A stretch of 64,000 bases of DNA from a virus, in IMG/VR virus record IMGVR_UViG_3300023174_000047, positions 124,001 through 188,000 of that record; one strand, 5' to 3'. The first letter of the stretch is position 1; each line of letters starts with the position of its first letter. Positions 8,697 to 18,534 of this stretch are shown piece after piece. The notes beneath the pieces are model-generated. The model saw only the letters and a program-made list of their open reading frames with translations. It ran no database searches and was not told where the DNA came from. The position numbers and the translations under genes were made by a program.

Positions 8697-10199
8697 ATGG
8701 CAAACAAAAAAGGCGATTATTATCTCAACAATCCTGCTCTACCCACAAGTAAAGCAGAGTTTGAGTATACATCTGAGATGATTAAAAATATTAAGAAATG
8801 TGAACAAAATTTGCTTTTCTTTGCAGAGAATTATTTTTACATCATAGATCCAGATGAAGGTAGAACCGTAATTAAACTATACAAGTATCAAAAAGATGCA
8901 CTGAGAATGTTGCGAGACAATAGATACAATTTGCTACTTGCAAGTCGTCAAATTGGCAAAGCTCTTGATGTAAATACACCCATCCCCTCACCAGATGGAT
9001 GGAAGACCATGGGCGAACTCAAAGATGGTGATCAAATATATGCAGCAGATGGTAGCATTTGCAATGTAGTAAAAGCACATGATGTGATGCATGATCGCAA
9101 ATGTTACAAAGTTGTTTTTAATAATGGTGAGGAGATTATTGCTGATGCGGATCATTTGTGGTTTACGCAGAGTCGATTGGAGCGACGCGCAAAGCAACAA
9201 GGTACTACAAAAACAACACAACAGTTGTTGAATACTCTTAAGACACATGGTGATGAGCCGAATCATAGAATTCCAGCATGCATTGCTGGTGTTGTAGGCA
9301 AGCACCAGCAATTACCTATGGATCCATATGTATTGGGACTATGGCTTGGAGATGGATGCAGTGATAGCAGATGCATTACAGCTAACAACCTTACAAACAA
9401 TAAACATATTCCTGATGTTTATCTCATGGCTTCAAGAGAGCAAAGATTAGAGCTGCTTAGGGGTCTGATTGATAGTGTTGGATACATGACGAAGTCAGGT
9501 GTTTGTCAGTTTTATAATACAAATCATACACTTGTTGAGCAGACCAAACAACTTGTAGAAAGTTTAGGATATAAAGTAACATCCAAGACCCATGTACCAA
9601 CCTTAAATGGTGTTGAATGCGCTGTTTGTAGCAGCATTACTTTCACTCCCATTGAGCCTCATATAAACAGCTCAAAACATAGAGCACAATGGCACTACAT
9701 CAAAGATATTCAGGAAGTTGAATCAGTTGCTGTTCGATGCATTACTGTTGATAGCAAGGACAATCTCTATTTGTGTGGAAAGCAATACATACCTACACAC
9801 AACACCACCCTGCTAACCATCTATGCATTGTGGATTGCATGTTTCAATCAAGATCAAAACATTATGATTGTTGCTAACAAAGAGAGCACAGCCATTGAAA
9901 TCTTCCGAAGAGTGCGTCTTGCTTATGAACAAATGCCAAACTGGCTCAAGCCTGGTGTTGACGAATATGGCAAGACGAGCATGATGCTCAACAATGGATC
10001 AAGAATTGGTATCAGTACCACAACTGGTTCTGCTGCTCGTGGTACATCTCTAAACTGTGTTAATGGTAATAGCATTATTACGGTTAGAAATAAAACCACG
10101 CAAGAGGTTGAAAATATAACAATTGCTGAGTTGCATCAAAGATTAGAAAAAAATACCTGGAAAACTAATTTAGTGGAAGATTCACCCAGTTTGATATAA
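8697..10199 (+). CDS. terL: Large terminase (gp17-like), N-terminal half with complete intein and split-intein N fragment
   Basis: This 500-aa ORF encodes, in order: extein 1 (residues 1-88, ending in the Walker A start LLLASRQIGK), a complete intein (89-369), extein 2 (370-453, TTLLTIYALW…GSAARGTSLN) and the N-terminal fragment of a second intein (454-500). Joined, the exteins read SRQIGK-TT, matching the T4 gp17 Walker A loop. The ORF stops inside intein 2, and the remainder resumes at 11860. TerL is the ATP-driven DNA-packaging motor and headful nuclease. Active protein needs one cis- and one trans-splicing event. The start at 8697 is preceded by TATAAATA. Confidence 0.92.
   Translation: MANKKGDYYLNNPALPTSKAEFEYTSEMIKNIKKCEQNLLFFAENYFYIIDPDEGRTVIKLYKYQKDALRMLRDNRYNLLLASRQIGKALDVNTPIPSPDGWKTMGELKDGDQIYAADGSICNVVKAHDVMHDRKCYKVVFNNGEEIIADADHLWFTQSRLERRAKQQGTTKTTQQLLNTLKTHGDEPNHRIPACIAGVVGKHQQLPMDPYVLGLWLGDGCSDSRCITANNLTNNKHIPDVYLMASREQRLELLRGLIDSVGYMTKSGVCQFYNTNHTLVEQTKQLVESLGYKVTSKTHVPTLNGVECAVCSSITFTPIEPHINSSKHRAQWHYIKDIQEVESVAVRCITVDSKDNLYLCGKQYIPTHNTTLLTIYALWIACFNQDQNIMIVANKESTAIEIFRRVRLAYEQMPNWLKPGVDEYGKTSMMLNNGSRIGISTTTGSAARGTSLNCVNGNSIITVRNKTTQEVENITIAELHQRLEKNTWKTNLVEDSPSLI
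8961..9803 (+). other. Intein 1: class-3-like intein with degenerate LAGLIDADG endonuclease, inserted in Walker A
   Basis: Residues 89-369 (281 aa) of the terminase N half. The intein starts with Ala, not Cys/Ser. It has block A (LDVNTPIPSPDGW), block B with ADADHLWF (H153, W155), and the C-terminal blocks VRCITVDS (C348) and YIPTHN followed by Thr. Trp in block B, Cys in block F and Thr at +1 form the WCT set of class 3 inteins. Two dodecapeptide motifs are present: VLGLWLGDG (212-220) and RGLIDSVG (255-262). They are only ~34 residues apart, and the second has Val in place of the usual catalytic acid, so the endonuclease looks truncated and dead. Confidence 0.88.
10056..10196 (+). other. 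Split intein N-fragment (IntN), 47 aa
   Basis: Begins at Cys454 of the terminase N half, with the block A pattern CVNGNSIITVRNK, and ends at the ORF stop. It is much shorter than classical split-intein N fragments (~100 aa) and lacks block B, which is instead on the partner ORF at 11860. Short IntN with block B on IntC is the arrangement known from the atypically split AceL-TerL intein, also in a terminase. Confidence 0.85.
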
Positions 10200-10208
10200 A
10201 TAAACTGG
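10186..10208 (+). promoter_or_regulatory. Hairpin with late promoter in its loop, at the endonuclease start
   Basis: CCAGTTT (10186-10192) pairs with AAACTGG (10202-10208). The loop carries TATAAATA (10195-10202), and the GTG start codon begins on the last stem base (10208), 5 nt after the box. Transcripts read through from terminase would carry the hairpin; transcripts from the late promoter would start at the GTG and lack the 5' arm. Confidence 0.5.
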
Positions 10209-11872
10209 TGGTTATAGAAATAAAACAAACTGCAGATGCAGCTGCAAAATTAAGCAAAAAGAGTTTCGATGACCACCAGCTTAGTTTTATAGTAAAACAT
10301 ACACTATACAGTGATGACATAACTTTTGCACAAAATGTTTTTAATATCATCAACGGCAATGTTGTTTGGCTCTGCAAGAATTGCAGCAATGCATTAAAAT
10401 TTAGAGGATACAAAGATGGATATGGGTTGTTTTGTTCAACGAAGTGTGCAAATACAAGCAATGTTGATAAGATTAAACAGACACACATCAACAAATATGG
10501 CAAACCGTGGATAGGTTCAAAAATTTGCAGAGAGTATCAAGCTAAGTTAAACTTGCAGAAGTATGGTACGGAGATTTACCAACAAACTAATGAGTTTAAA
10601 CAAAAATTGCAAGACACATGGATCAACAAAGATAAAGAAGCATTGATGGCAAAGATGGTGCAAAAAAATTTAGAAAAGTATGGGACTGATCACTATTTTG
10701 AAACCGATGAATTCAAAAACAAATCACAACTCACATGTCTTAAAAAATATGGTGTCAGTAATGCAATGCAAAGTGCTGAAATTCAGAACAAAGCAAAAGC
10801 CAACAGTGCACTCAAATATATTGATGATATTCAAGAGCAGTGCAATGTAAAGTTGATTGATGAATATAATGGTTGTGCAAAGTATACAAAATATCAGTGG
10901 CAATGTTTAGTATGCAACAACAGCTTTTATGCAGATATATCCATCGGTCACCGCCCCCGGTGTTTCAATTGCAATCCCAGACAAGGAACAAACATTGAAG
11001 AGCGGTTGTTTGAATTTTTAAATGAATGTGGTATTTCATATATTATTCGCAGCAGACAGGTGATATCGCCCTATGAGGTGGATATTTTTATTCCACAAAG
11101 CAATGTTGCCATTGAAGTCAATGGATTAATTTGGCATAGTCTTAGATCTGGTGGCAAAGATAAATTGTATCATGTTAATAAATTTCAAATGTGTCTAGAC
11201 AAGGGCATAAAACTCATACAGCTATATGAGGATGATATACTTGATGAGGATAAATTTAACATCATCAAAAGTAGATTGTCTGTTGTTCTTAATATGCAAG
11301 GCATGCAGCGAATTTATGCTCGTAAATGTGAATTTAAAAAAATCAATGCAACAGATGCAAAAACATTTTGTAATGAAAACCATCTTGATGCTTACTGCAA
11401 TGCCCAATTTAATTATGGGTTATTCCACAACAATAAACTTGTTTCCGTTGCTTGCTTCTCAACAGTTAAATCGAGAATCATATTTCGCCAAAGCAATCAG
11501 CCTGCTGCACATGAATTAATTAGATTCTGCTGCATAAAAAATACTCAGGTCATAGGTGCATTGAGTAAATTTGTTAAAAATCATGCAAACCTACACCAAA
11601 CCAACATTATTTCATATTGCGATTTGAATTGGGGTAGAAGTACATCTTATATTCATGCAGGATTTGAATATATAAAGCAAACTAGCCCCGGCTTCTACTA
11701 CATTAAAAACAACAAAAGACATCATAGATTTACTTTTGCTAAGCACAAGCAAAAGCAATTATTTGAAAACTTTGACCACAATTTGACAGAATTTCAAAAC
11801 TGTTTTAACAATAATATTGATGTATTGTTTAATGTGGGTTGCGATAAATATATGTATAAATGGCTGACCTAA
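10208..11872 (+). CDS. EDxHD (Vsr-like) homing endonuclease inside the split terminase, 554 aa
   Basis: It starts at a GTG (no ATG fits) 5 nt after TATAAATA. Two cysteine pairs form zinc-finger-like units (C56/C59 with C76/C80, and C233/C236 with C252/C255). Between them lie repeats of the type KYGTDHYFETDEFKNKS, resembling nuclease-associated DNA-binding modules. The catalytic core (residues ~262-350) has IEERLFEF, EVDIFIP (D292), AIEVNGLIWHS (E303, H310) and LIQLYEDD, matching the EDxHD/Vsr-like homing endonucleases found between halves of fractured genes. A C-terminal domain (~365-520) is shared with the endonuclease at 16777. It would cut intein-less terminase alleles to spread the element. 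Confidence 0.85.
   Translation: MVIEIKQTADAAAKLSKKSFDDHQLSFIVKHTLYSDDITFAQNVFNIINGNVVWLCKNCSNALKFRGYKDGYGLFCSTKCANTSNVDKIKQTHINKYGKPWIGSKICREYQAKLNLQKYGTEIYQQTNEFKQKLQDTWINKDKEALMAKMVQKNLEKYGTDHYFETDEFKNKSQLTCLKKYGVSNAMQSAEIQNKAKANSALKYIDDIQEQCNVKLIDEYNGCAKYTKYQWQCLVCNNSFYADISIGHRPRCFNCNPRQGTNIEERLFEFLNECGISYIIRSRQVISPYEVDIFIPQSNVAIEVNGLIWHSLRSGGKDKLYHVNKFQMCLDKGIKLIQLYEDDILDEDKFNIIKSRLSVVLNMQGMQRIYARKCEFKKINATDAKTFCNENHLDAYCNAQFNYGLFHNNKLVSVACFSTVKSRIIFRQSNQPAAHELIRFCCIKNTQVIGALSKFVKNHANLHQTNIISYCDLNWGRSTSYIHAGFEYIKQTSPGFYYIKNNKRHHRFTFAKHKQKQLFENFDHNLTEFQNCFNNNIDVLFNVGCDKYMYKWLT
11844..11850 (+). promoter_or_regulatory. Late promoter box (ATAAATA) for the terminase C half
   Basis: ATAAATA, 9 nt before the ATG at 11860, within the 3' end of the endonuclease gene. 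It would allow independent late expression of the C-terminal half. Confidence 0.5.
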
Positions 11873-12201
11873 ACAATCATATTTCTGTTTTTAATTCTGA
11901 GTATGAAATTTTAACACATGAAGGTTTTAAGGATTTCAAAGGCGTAATTAGGGGCGATAATCACAACAAAATTGAGTTGGAATTGTCAAATGGACGCAAT
12001 TTGATATGCACACCCAAACATAAAATATATAAGCACGATATGCAAATTGCATTTGCAGAAGATTTGCATGCAGGTGATGAATTGTATAATGGCATTGAAA
12101 TTAAGAAGAAAACCCAATTTACAGACAGCAACAGTGTGTATGAAATAATACACATACAAGATAATCATTCATATTTGGTAAATGATGTTTTGTGTCATCA
12201 A
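11860..12201 (+). other. Split intein C-fragment (IntC), 114 aa, ending in His-Gln
   Basis: Residues 1-114 of the terminase C half. Block B (LICTPKHKIY, residues 48-57) and the C-terminal blocks (SVYEIIHIQDNHSYLVN, then DVLCHQ) are followed by Cys as +1 residue. The last intein residue is Gln114 where most inteins have Asn; Gln is a known but uncommon substitute that can still cyclise. Confidence 0.85.
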
Positions 12202-13404
12202 TGTCTCATTCTAGATGAGCTTGCATTCATTGATCCACCTTCCATCATGGATGATTTTTGGCGATCAGTGTGGCCAACCATTTCTCGATCCAAACACTCC
12301 AAAGTCCTCATTGCCTCTACACCCAAAGGCACAGATAACCTGTTTTATCAGCTGTATGACGGGGCCATCAAAGGTGAGAATGGCTTTGCAAGCATGACCA
12401 TCAAATGGGATGCAGTTCCTGGTCATGATGAAAAGTGGAAACGTGAACAAATCAAACAAATCGGTAGCGTGGAATCATTTATGCAAGAATATGATTGCCA
12501 GTTTCTTCAAAGTGGTGAATCGTCCATTGACTTGAGCACATTTGATAAACTCAGGCAATATTGTACAACACCTCAGTTTTTTCTTGAAAGCGACAAATAT
12601 ATGATATGGAAATCACCACTACCAGATCGTCTGTATGCAGTTGGTGTTGATGTTGCTGAAGGAGTAGGTCAGAATTATTCTGTTATTCAAATTCTTGATA
12701 TCACCGATTTGACCAGCATTGAGCAAGTTGCTGTTTACAGAGATAATACCATTGCACCAGCACAATTTACAACAAAATTGCATGAAATAATGCAGCAATG
12801 GGGAAACCCCTTGGTTCTCATTGAAAGAAACAACTGCGGTGCTCAGGTTGTTGATAATCTGCGGAATATACATCAGTATGAAAATATTGTAAGCTATGGG
12901 GCTGAACTAGCTGGCCGCAAAAAAGATTTTTTAGGTGTTGTTGCTCACACCAACACCAAACAGCGCGGTGTTCGCAACATGAGATACTGGGTCAATACAC
13001 TCAACTGTGTGCGTTTCAATCATTTACAGACTATTCTTGAGCTCAAAGACTTTGTATGCAAGCCCAACGGAACATGGAGTGCGCGTGGCAGTGGAGTGGA
13101 CGATTGTGTCATGAGCCTCATTTGGGCACTGGTGTTGCTTGATAATGACCCACAGTATGGCATATGCGGCAATTATTTTGAAGTTGTTGATTTGGATGAA
13201 AATGGCAAACCTAGATCCATCAAGCCTTTGGATTACGGCTTAAAGTACTTCACATCAAACAATAAAAAATATGATTTGTTTGGCAATGCATTGGAAGCCA
13301 CTAAATACTCAGATGCAGCAAGCTTGCCCATTGTGTTTGGCAGTTCTACCAATCAAAGCAGCGAAGTAAGTGACCTTGAATTAGAGGGCTGGACAATATT
13401 ATGA
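11860..13404 (+). CDS. terL: Large terminase (gp17-like), C-terminal half with split-intein C fragment
   Basis: A 514-aa ORF: IntC (1-114), then the extein from Cys115. The extein starts directly at the Walker B strand (CLILDELAFI, D119/E120), continues with the coupling motif region (ASTPKGTDN, ~152-160) and carries the RNase H-fold nuclease (AVGVDVAEGVGQ, D264), an IERN segment and a late DDCVMS motif. The three extein pieces sum to about 572 aa, close to T4 gp17 (610 aa). The start overlaps the endonuclease stop by 13 bases. The protein must trans-splice to the 8697 product to join Walker A and Walker B. Confidence 0.92.
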   Translation: MADLNNHISVFNSEYEILTHEGFKDFKGVIRGDNHNKIELELSNGRNLICTPKHKIYKHDMQIAFAEDLHAGDELYNGIEIKKKTQFTDSNSVYEIIHIQDNHSYLVNDVLCHQCLILDELAFIDPPSIMDDFWRSVWPTISRSKHSKVLIASTPKGTDNLFYQLYDGAIKGENGFASMTIKWDAVPGHDEKWKREQIKQIGSVESFMQEYDCQFLQSGESSIDLSTFDKLRQYCTTPQFFLESDKYMIWKSPLPDRLYAVGVDVAEGVGQNYSVIQILDITDLTSIEQVAVYRDNTIAPAQFTTKLHEIMQQWGNPLVLIERNNCGAQVVDNLRNIHQYENIVSYGAELAGRKKDFLGVVAHTNTKQRGVRNMRYWVNTLNCVRFNHLQTILELKDFVCKPNGTWSARGSGVDDCVMSLIWALVLLDNDPQYGICGNYFEVVDLDENGKPRSIKPLDYGLKYFTSNNKKYDLFGNALEATKYSDAASLPIVFGSSTNQSSEVSDLELEGWTIL

Positions 13405-16776: not shown

Positions 16777-18534
16777 ATGTCTTTGATAGAAGAAATACAG
16801 AGCAATTTATACACAAAAACAAACAAAATTAATACTGCCATAATAAGGCAAGATTGGTTTAAAAAATCTAATTTGTATGCAGATATAATGAAAGAGACAT
16901 CCTTTCTTGACAATGACGTATGCTTTGCAGCGCGAATATTTTGCATAGTCAATAATATCAAGAGCATGCCAGCGTGCCCTGTAACCGGTAAAAGTGTTAA
17001 GTGGTTACCTACAAAACATAGATTTGCCATTGCTGCTGGCAGATCAAATGCATCTAAAATTAAAAAAATTGATAATGCAAAACTATCTCAAAGCCTCAAA
17101 GCATCAAAAGCATTAATCAAAAGTAACTTCTACAGCCTATACAAAACAAATAAATTTAATATTGTCAGTAGAGAAAAATGCACAGACTTTATAAAGAGCA
17201 GATTGGAACACACCGATCACGGAAGAAAGCATAATTTTGTAGATACATCTATACTTAAAAAATATCATGATGAGTGTTGCAGCATTATTCTACATACACA
17301 GCATCCATTATTAGATGATAATGATATAAACTGGAGTGAAAGGTTTTTTCTTTTGTATAATAATGATGTCCCGAAACTATGTAATTATGATCCCACACAA
17401 AAGGCAAAATTTTGCAATTTCTTAGCTGGGTACAATAACAATAGTTCTGCACAGGCAAGGAATAAAAACACATTAAAAATAATCAAGCAATCCATTGAGT
17501 ATCAAAACTTCTCTATTTTAAATGATATAAACTCACATCAACAAGAGTATCAATTGAGATGCAATGTCTGTAATAGTATTTTACAGCGAAGATTGACAAA
17601 TGCGCGCTGGAAAGATATATTTTGTGCCAAATGCAACAATGTTACCGTGGGATCGTCTCGTGCAGAAGCAGAGATATCTGCTTTTCTGCAAAATGACTGC
17701 AACATGCAGGTTGAGAGATTATATGACTTGCCACCTAGTGGAATAGAAATCGATATATTTCTACCACAGAAAAACGTTGGTATCGAGCATCACGGCTTAT
17801 TGTGGCATAGTTTTGGTTCTTGCTTCCCCGACAATGCAGATGTTGAAAGTGTAAACAAATTTAAGCATAGAAATAAGCGGGATATATGCATGAGCAACAA
17901 TGTACAGTTGTTGCAGATTTTTGAAAATGAATGGATTGATAAAAGAAACATTGTTGAGTCAATGATGCGTAGCAAGTTAGGAATATTGCAAAATAAAATC
18001 TATGCTCGCAATTGCACAATACAATGCATCACAGCAAAACAGAAAAGTATTTTTCTTAATAATAATCACATACAAGGCAATGACAATTCACAAATTGCAA
18101 TTGCTCTAATTCATGAAGGTGACATTGTTGCAGCAATGACTTTTGGTAACCGCAAAATAACTGCAAATAAAACTTTTGAACTCATAAGATTTTGCTGCAA
18201 AACAAACACAAGCGTTATTGGAGGTGCCTCTAAATTATTAAAATACTTTACAAAAAAACATAATGTATCATGCATTACAACATATGCTGATTTGAGATTT
18301 TGCTTTGATGGTTCGTTTTACAAAAACTTAGGCTTTAAGCACATCAGAACAACACCACCTGCATACTGGTACACAGATACAAAGACTGTGATGCACCGCT
18401 CCAACTTTCAAAAACATAAATTAGTAAAACAGGGTGATGATTTGAGTCTTACAGAATGGGAAATTATGAAAGAGCGTGGGTGGCGTAGAATATGGGATTG
18501 TGGTCACATGGTTTTTGAATATAAATATTCATAA
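16777..18534 (+). CDS. Free-standing EDxHD (Vsr-like) homing endonuclease, 585 aa
   Basis: It belongs to the same family as the endonuclease inside the terminase. A Cys4 zinc ribbon (C262, C265, C283, C286) precedes the nuclease core AEAEISAFL, IEIDIFLP (D326), VGIEHHGLLWHS (E337, H344) and LLQIFENEW. The C-terminal ~200 residues (KIYARNC…FELIRFCCKTNTSVIGGASK…YADLRF…NLGF) match the partner's C-terminal domain and look GNAT-like. The N-terminal 250 residues differ from the partner and may set target specificity. It sits between sheath and gp4 and is not in an intein or intron that I can see. Its stop overlaps the gp4 start (TAATG). Confidence 0.8.
   Translation: MSLIEEIQSNLYTKTNKINTAIIRQDWFKKSNLYADIMKETSFLDNDVCFAARIFCIVNNIKSMPACPVTGKSVKWLPTKHRFAIAAGRSNASKIKKIDNAKLSQSLKASKALIKSNFYSLYKTNKFNIVSREKCTDFIKSRLEHTDHGRKHNFVDTSILKKYHDECCSIILHTQHPLLDDNDINWSERFFLLYNNDVPKLCNYDPTQKAKFCNFLAGYNNNSSAQARNKNTLKIIKQSIEYQNFSILNDINSHQQEYQLRCNVCNSILQRRLTNARWKDIFCAKCNNVTVGSSRAEAEISAFLQNDCNMQVERLYDLPPSGIEIDIFLPQKNVGIEHHGLLWHSFGSCFPDNADVESVNKFKHRNKRDICMSNNVQLLQIFENEWIDKRNIVESMMRSKLGILQNKIYARNCTIQCITAKQKSIFLNNNHIQGNDNSQIAIALIHEGDIVAAMTFGNRKITANKTFELIRFCCKTNTSVIGGASKLLKYFTKKHNVSCITTYADLRFCFDGSFYKNLGFKHIRTTPPAYWYTDTKTVMHRSNFQKHKLVKQGDDLSLTEWEIMKERGWRRIWDCGHMVFEYKYS

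What the first reader, a model, noticed from the sequence alone, without database searches (positions are those of the whole stretch)
8697..13404. Large terminase needs two splicing events: one cis intein in Walker A and one trans split intein at Walker B
The two catalytic Walker motifs are each interrupted: intein 1 lies between SRQIGK and TT, and the split intein lies between …GTSLN and CLILDE. The gene is broken into two ORFs separated by a 1.7-kb endonuclease gene. Active motor protein requires cis-splicing plus trans-splicing. Two inteins in one terminase, one of them split and carrying a fractured-gene endonuclease, is an exceptionally layered arrangement that would make packaging dependent on protein splicing.
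Basis: partly seen in the sequence, partly recalled or inferred. Interest (0 to 1): 0.93.

Follow-up and report, generated by a model that had tools for sequence, protein, structure and literature searches.

The report
Phage packaging motor with two inteins
A T4-like phage's DNA-packaging motor gene is interrupted at both halves of its ATP-burning centre by self-removing protein inserts, one of which cuts the gene in two so the halves must be stitched together; the reading is right, but the same layout recurs in other phages and each part has known relatives.

Summary
TerL is encoded by two ORFs (8697-10199 and 11860-13404) with a homing-endonuclease-type gene (10208-11872) between them. A 281-aa cis intein sits at Walker A (GK|TT). 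A split intein (47 + 114 aa) sits just before Walker B (SLN|CLILDE). Removing both gives 572 aa that align without missing or duplicated residues at either junction with seven intein-free relatives.

Refinements: intein 1 is class 3 (A1, W67/C260/T279) with a dead LAGLIDADG endonuclease (DSVG). The split intein is class 1, atypically split (short N half), related to the Cat/VidaL group, and ends in Gln instead of Asn. The gene between the halves encodes a Vsr-like nuclease with a Mom-like C-terminal domain.

It is not unique. The Walker B allele has 31 non-redundant IMG/VR copies; 27 end in Gln and all 27 with a readable N half are split. About six other lineages also carry the Walker A class 3 intein. 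Campylobacter phages CP21 and IBB_35 already show a more layered TerL. Several relatives are split with almost no DNA between the halves, which excludes an intron there.

Splicing itself was not shown. Verdict: real and well supported, a new variant of a known kind; regulation has no positive support.

The parts
8697..10199 (+). TerL N-terminal ORF: N-extein + intein 1 + middle extein + intein N-half
   Evidence: (PHROG terminase large subunit)
8697..8960 (+). extein A (88 aa), ends ...SRQIGK (first part of Walker A)
8961..9803 (+). intein 1, cis, 281 aa, class 3 (Ala1; W67, C260, T279; N281 | Thr+1), with a degenerate LAGLIDADG domain (DSVG)
9804..10055 (+). extein B (84 aa), TTLLTIYA...AARGTSLN
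10056..10196 (+). split intein N-half (47 aa, Cys1), followed by stop codon TAA 10197-10199
10208..11872 (+). homing-endonuclease-type gene (554 aa): treble-clef and NUMOD-like N part, Vsr/EDxHD-like nuclease, Mom-like C-terminal domain (GTG start as listed; true start uncertain)
   Evidence: the domain names NUMOD and EDxHD are read from the sequence and general knowledge
11860..13404 (+). TerL C-terminal ORF: intein C-half + C-extein; start overlaps the HEG stop by 13 nt
11860..12201 (+). split intein C-half (114 aa; conserved MADL start; ends CHQ | C+1)
12202..13404 (+). extein C (400 aa): Walker B CLILDE, rest of the ATPase and the nuclease domain

Best explanation
This is a fractured gp17-type large terminase gene carrying two independent inteins, each next to a catalytic motif of the ATPase. 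Intein 1 (Walker A, GK|TT) is a class 3 cis intein. Its internal Cys260 attacks the N-junction, the chain passes to Thr+1, Asn281 cyclises, and SRQIGK is joined to TTLL. Intein 2 (before Walker B) is an atypically split class 1 intein. The 47-aa N-half on ORF 1 and the 114-aa C-half on ORF 2 associate, Cys1 and Cys+1 exchange the thioester, the C-terminal Gln (not Asn) cyclises, and SLN is joined to CLILDE. The product is a 572-aa TerL. The gene between the halves is a Vsr-like homing endonuclease that would spread the split locus; intein 1's own endonuclease is dead. Shown here: anatomy, gapless junctions, predicted intein folds, conserved catalytic residues, purifying selection on the C-half in relatives, and persistence of the split without intron space in relatives. 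Inferred: the splicing chemistry, its need for packaging, and homing by the Vsr-like gene.
For: Gapless extein alignment at both junctions. HMM of TerL inteins matches both halves as one intein. AlphaFold models: C-half pLDDT 95, best PDB match the Cat atypically split intein 6dsl (TM 0.82), also VidaL 6vgv; intein 1 pLDDT 90, matching PI-SceI and class 3 DnaB inteins 6bs8/6rix. W67, C260, T279 and N281 are invariant in an alignment of 33 intein 1 sequences. The Walker B allele has 31 non-redundant copies. All 27 with a readable N-half start with Cys1 and stop about 36-55 aa later. C-half dN/dS is 0.10-0.16. In L043, N-half and C-half ORFs lie 2 bp apart. No intron family in Rfam. No second TerL in the record.
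Against: No RNA or protein data. C-terminal Gln splices slowly in some inteins, although CIV RNR splices better with Gln (PMC4031507). The record may be incomplete. No close relative of this exact two-intein copy was found, so selection on this copy itself was not measured.
Confidence: 0.9

Rival explanations
1. RNA splicing: the endonuclease gene lies in a group I or II intron that interrupts a cis intein, so intein 2 is translated in one piece. This is how IBB_35 terL was described, and ICP1 terL does use transcript splicing.
For: Published precedents: PMC3322345 for IBB_35; PMC10448857 for ICP1 terL.
Against: No intron family in Rfam even at E<5. The HEG ORF starts 9 nt after the N-ORF stop and overlaps the C-ORF start by 13 nt, leaving little non-coding room for an intron core. 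Relatives of the same allele are split with a gap of 2 bp (L043) or no HEG (L049, L057, L061, L062), where no intron fits. Each C-half has its own conserved ATG (MAD start).
Confidence: 0.05
2. Decayed gene: the insertions have killed terL, and the phage packages with another terminase or is a defective assembly.
For: HEN of intein 1 is dead and the C-terminal residue is Gln, signs one could read as decay.
Against: All extein and splicing residues are intact. The Gln is conserved in 27 of 31 non-redundant alleles, with purifying selection on C-halves. No other TerL in the record.
Confidence: 0.04
3. Conditional assembly: the splicing happens as described, but it also serves as a timing switch for packaging, since both inteins sit in the ATPase centre.
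For: Both catalytic motifs are interrupted; the Walker B allele stays split after HEG loss in relatives.
Against: Distribution is patchy (at least 14 and 13 changes on a tree of 59 TerLs). Near-identical phages exist with and without intein 1. ATPase motifs are general intein targets (PMC5050341). Selfish homing explains the same facts.
Confidence: 0.1

Closest known systems
AceL-TerL / GOS-TerL / Cat (6dsl) / VidaL (6vgv) atypically split inteins
   Same: Short N-half, long C-half; best fold match of the C-half is Cat. AceL-TerL 25+104 aa, GOS-TerL 37+115 aa, Cat-TerL 30+104 aa (PMC11766414).
   Different: This allele sits before Walker B and ends in Gln. The sequence-level Cat match found here is to a TerL intein at another site (HN|CEF in L084).
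Fractured genes (Dassa et al. 2009, NAR 37:2560)
   Same: Split intein halves on two ORFs with a free-standing homing-endonuclease-type gene between them. The paper was not held; known from citing papers and general knowledge.
   Different: Second, cis intein in the same gene.
Campylobacter phages CP21 (HE815464) and vB_CcoM-IBB_35 (HM246721) terL
   Same: Cis intein in Walker A, split intein with HEG just before Walker B, T4-like TerL.
   Different: Their Walker A intein starts with Cys, three residues earlier (PRQ|C); split site is two residues earlier with a C-terminal Asn; a third intein at DE|C; the gene between the halves looks GIY-YIG-like in CP21.
Class 3 phage/mycobacterial inteins (TerL1-a site, DnaB; 6bs8, 6rix)
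   Same: WCT motif, Ala1; P-loop Lys|Thr insertion as at the mycobacteriophage TerL1-a site (PMC5050341).
   Different: Here in a gp17-type TerL; endonuclease inactivated and about 50-70 aa shorter than its relatives.

Membership tests
Class 3 intein (intein 1) | No nucleophile at position 1; Trp B:12, Cys F:4, Thr G:5 | tested here: met
   Ala1, W67, C260, T279; last three invariant in an alignment of 33 sequences; class 3 DnaB inteins are the best PDB sequence hits
Class 3 intein (intein 1) | Splices through a branched thioester on the internal Cys | not testable with these tools
   needs C260A mutant assay
LAGLIDADG homing intein (intein 1) | Two intact LAGLIDADG motifs with catalytic Asp | tested here: not met
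   Second motif reads DSVG in the window; 36 of 38 nonredundant copies read D(S/T/A)DG, one was not scored and the window is the exception; 281 aa against 327-356
Atypically split class 1 TerL intein (intein 2) | Cys1/Ser1, split between blocks A and B, block B TxxH, Cys+1, HINT fold | tested here: met
Atypically split class 1 TerL intein (intein 2) | C-terminal His-Asn (usual, not strictly required) | tested here: not met
   His-Gln; Gln in 27 of 31 non-redundant alleles at this site. Known functional inteins with Gln exist (PMC4031507)
Fractured gene with split intein and HEG | Two ORFs with complementary intein halves and an endonuclease gene between | tested here: met
Fractured gene with split intein and HEG | Protein trans-splicing of the halves | not testable with these tools
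   needs co-expression
Group I/II intron | Conserved intron core at the break | tested here: not met
   no Rfam intron hit at E<5

The most novel reading that the evidence does not exclude
The Walker B allele is a stable, always-split, Gln-terminated intein lineage that survives loss of its endonuclease, so that many uncultured T4-like phages permanently build their packaging motor by trans-splicing, perhaps with slow Gln cyclisation delaying motor assembly until late in infection.
Probability: 0.15. Interest if true: 0.75.

Novelty: new variant of a known kind. Interest (0 to 1): 0.5.

Why it matters
It gives a clean case of two unrelated splicing chemistries (class 3 cis, class 1 trans with Gln) needed for one essential motor, and shows that the Walker B split allele is widespread and usually Gln-terminated, offering many new natural short-N-half split inteins for protein labelling. 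Near-isogenic phage sequences with and without intein 1, differing only by silent changes beside the insertion site, make natural homing directly testable.

Tried and rejected
Intron in the break: Rfam negative, and relatives split with a 2-bp gap. Second intact TerL in the record: none. Sequencing error behind the Gln: rejected, since CAA to an Asn codon (AAT/AAC) needs two changes and the Gln recurs in 27 of 31 alleles. Dassa 2009, Tori and Perler 2011, and two DOIs tried from memory for the GOS-TerL and AceL-TerL papers are not held, so those comparisons rest on citing papers.

Full report
What is there. The window is positions 124001-188000 of a 203,774-bp IMG/VR virus record. TerL is encoded by two ORFs, 8697-10199 and 11860-13404, with a 554-codon gene 10208-11872 between them. 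PHROG and Pfam place both ORFs in the terminase large subunit, T4 type, and the next gene downstream is a tail tube protein. Cutting out 8961-9803 and joining 10055 to 12202 gives 572 aa.

Junction test. Seven intein-free TerLs from IMG/VR (43-71% identical) align with no gap at either junction. L004 reads SRQIGK|TTML and RGTSLN|VLILDE. The only change at the second site relative to L004 is V to C at +1; other intein-free relatives (L005, L013) already have C there.

Intein 1. It has no nucleophile at position 1 (Ala1) but has the class 3 triplet: W67, C260, T279, all invariant in an alignment of 33 sequences. The nearest solved sequences are class 3 DnaB inteins. The AlphaFold model (pLDDT 90) matches PI-SceI and the class 3 inteins 6bs8/6rix. 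The Lys|Thr P-loop site is the classic TerL1-a type site of mycobacteriophages (PMC5050341). The endonuclease is judged dead: the second LAGLIDADG motif reads DSVG where the other scored relatives read D(S/T/A)DG, and the intein is 281 aa against 327-356 aa.

Intein 2. The N-half (47 aa) has Cys1 and block A; the C-half (114 aa) has blocks B, F and G. An HMM from five other TerL inteins, window left out, matches the joined halves at E=9e-24 and each half alone. The C-half model (pLDDT 95) best matches Cat, the consensus atypically split intein (6dsl, TM 0.82), and also VidaL. Its last residue is Gln. Inteins with Gln can splice, some slowly, one better than with Asn (PMC4031507).

How common. 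A scan with a C-half profile returned 228 relatives, of which 80 were kept. At this site there are 31 non-redundant alleles, 27 ending in Gln. All 27 whose N-half was read have Cys1 and a stop about 36-55 residues later, and none of these is in one frame with its C-half; two look-alikes in a single frame (L089, L092) end in Asn and were not resolved. C-halves of the allele start with MAD. Where an endonuclease lies between the halves in relatives it is a 250-300-aa GIY-YIG protein; the window instead has a Vsr-like nuclease with a Mom-like domain. Several relatives have no endonuclease (L043, L047, L049, L057, L061, L062), and L040 keeps only a tail-like remnant. In L043 the halves are 2 bp apart. 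This excludes an intron there and supports trans-splicing for the allele. C-half dN/dS in pairs of relatives is 0.10-0.16.

The pair. Both inteins occur together in L040, L047, L052/L055, L058/L138, L080/L081/L132 and L129/L130. On a tree of 59 TerLs the Walker B split needs at least 14 changes and intein 1 at least 13 (L129 was scored as lacking the split there and L082 is a distant row, so counts are approximate; the loci were also collected by searching for these inteins, so the tree says nothing about their true frequency). Some relatives carry a further intein half at a QEF|C-type or DEC site (L056, L057, L062, L075, L083).

Natural empty site for intein 1. L058 (with intein 1) and L059 (without) were compared over 4,141 bp. 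They differ at 5 positions only: -16, -7, -4, +3 and +6 around the insertion point, all third codon positions and all silent (sequences). This is what co-conversion during homing would leave; a mis-assembly of two strains is not excluded. L053/L052 are a second, more diverged empty/occupied pair (473 of 501 bases alike in the flanking exteins).

Precedents. Campylobacter phage CP21 has a cis intein in Walker A (PRQ|C...HN|SSKST), a split intein with a GIY-YIG-like gene at RGFS|C, and a third intein at DE|C. In IBB_35 the third is itself interrupted by a MobE-like gene; its authors described an intein plus an intron (PMC3322345). Vibrio phage vB_VmeM-32 has a C-half at Walker A and a cis intein at DE|C. 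Shewanella phage Thanatos-2 is split at DE|C. Krischvirus ELT3, Synechococcus phage B23 and Alishewanella phage Slicko01 have the Walker A class 3 intein alone; RaK2-like phages match across the same intein.

Judgement. Protein cis plus trans splicing is the best reading (0.90). The arrangement is a new variant of a known kind. What seems new, within the papers I could search, is the predominance of Gln at the end of this split allele and its persistence without an endonuclease. Regulation by splicing has no positive support; selfish homing into ATPase motifs explains the pattern.

Noticed in passing
G000:C1:88401-90909 (L028:1902-4410), outside the window: The same phage has a fractured DNA polymerase: N-half ending in a Ser1 split intein at GDTD|S, a 332-aa endonuclease-like gene, and a C-half ending HN|SVYLS. 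Similar to the split PolB intein of phage MIJ3 (PMC6892783).
   Followed up: partly
G000:C1:86507-88401 (L028:8-1902), outside the window: The polymerase is broken a second time upstream, with a minus-strand endonuclease-like ORF (L028:605-1486) between pieces matching PHROG 262 up to position 496 and from 527. How these pieces are joined is unknown.
   Followed up: no
window 16777-18534: A second 585-aa homing-endonuclease-type gene with Mom-like C-terminal domain just after the tail sheath gene, 32-35% identical to the one inside terL.
   Followed up: partly
L058 and L059: Near-isogenic phage sequences with and without intein 1; the only 5 differences in 4,141 bp are silent and within 16 bp of the insertion site.
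   Followed up: yes
L013:5500-6270 and L014: A 256-aa TerL-like ATPase-domain ORF with a changed Walker A (ARQTGIS) directly upstream of an intact terL.
   Followed up: no
L012:5485-8186: A close relative (71-74% identical) has its own atypically split intein at another TerL site, EFN|CQF, with a different gene between the halves.
   Followed up: partly
L018 (Campylobacter phage Los1): Only the C-half ORF of a split TerL (intein C-half + C-extein) is next to the neck genes; no N-half is annotated within the 4 kb fetched on either side, so it may lie elsewhere.
   Followed up: no
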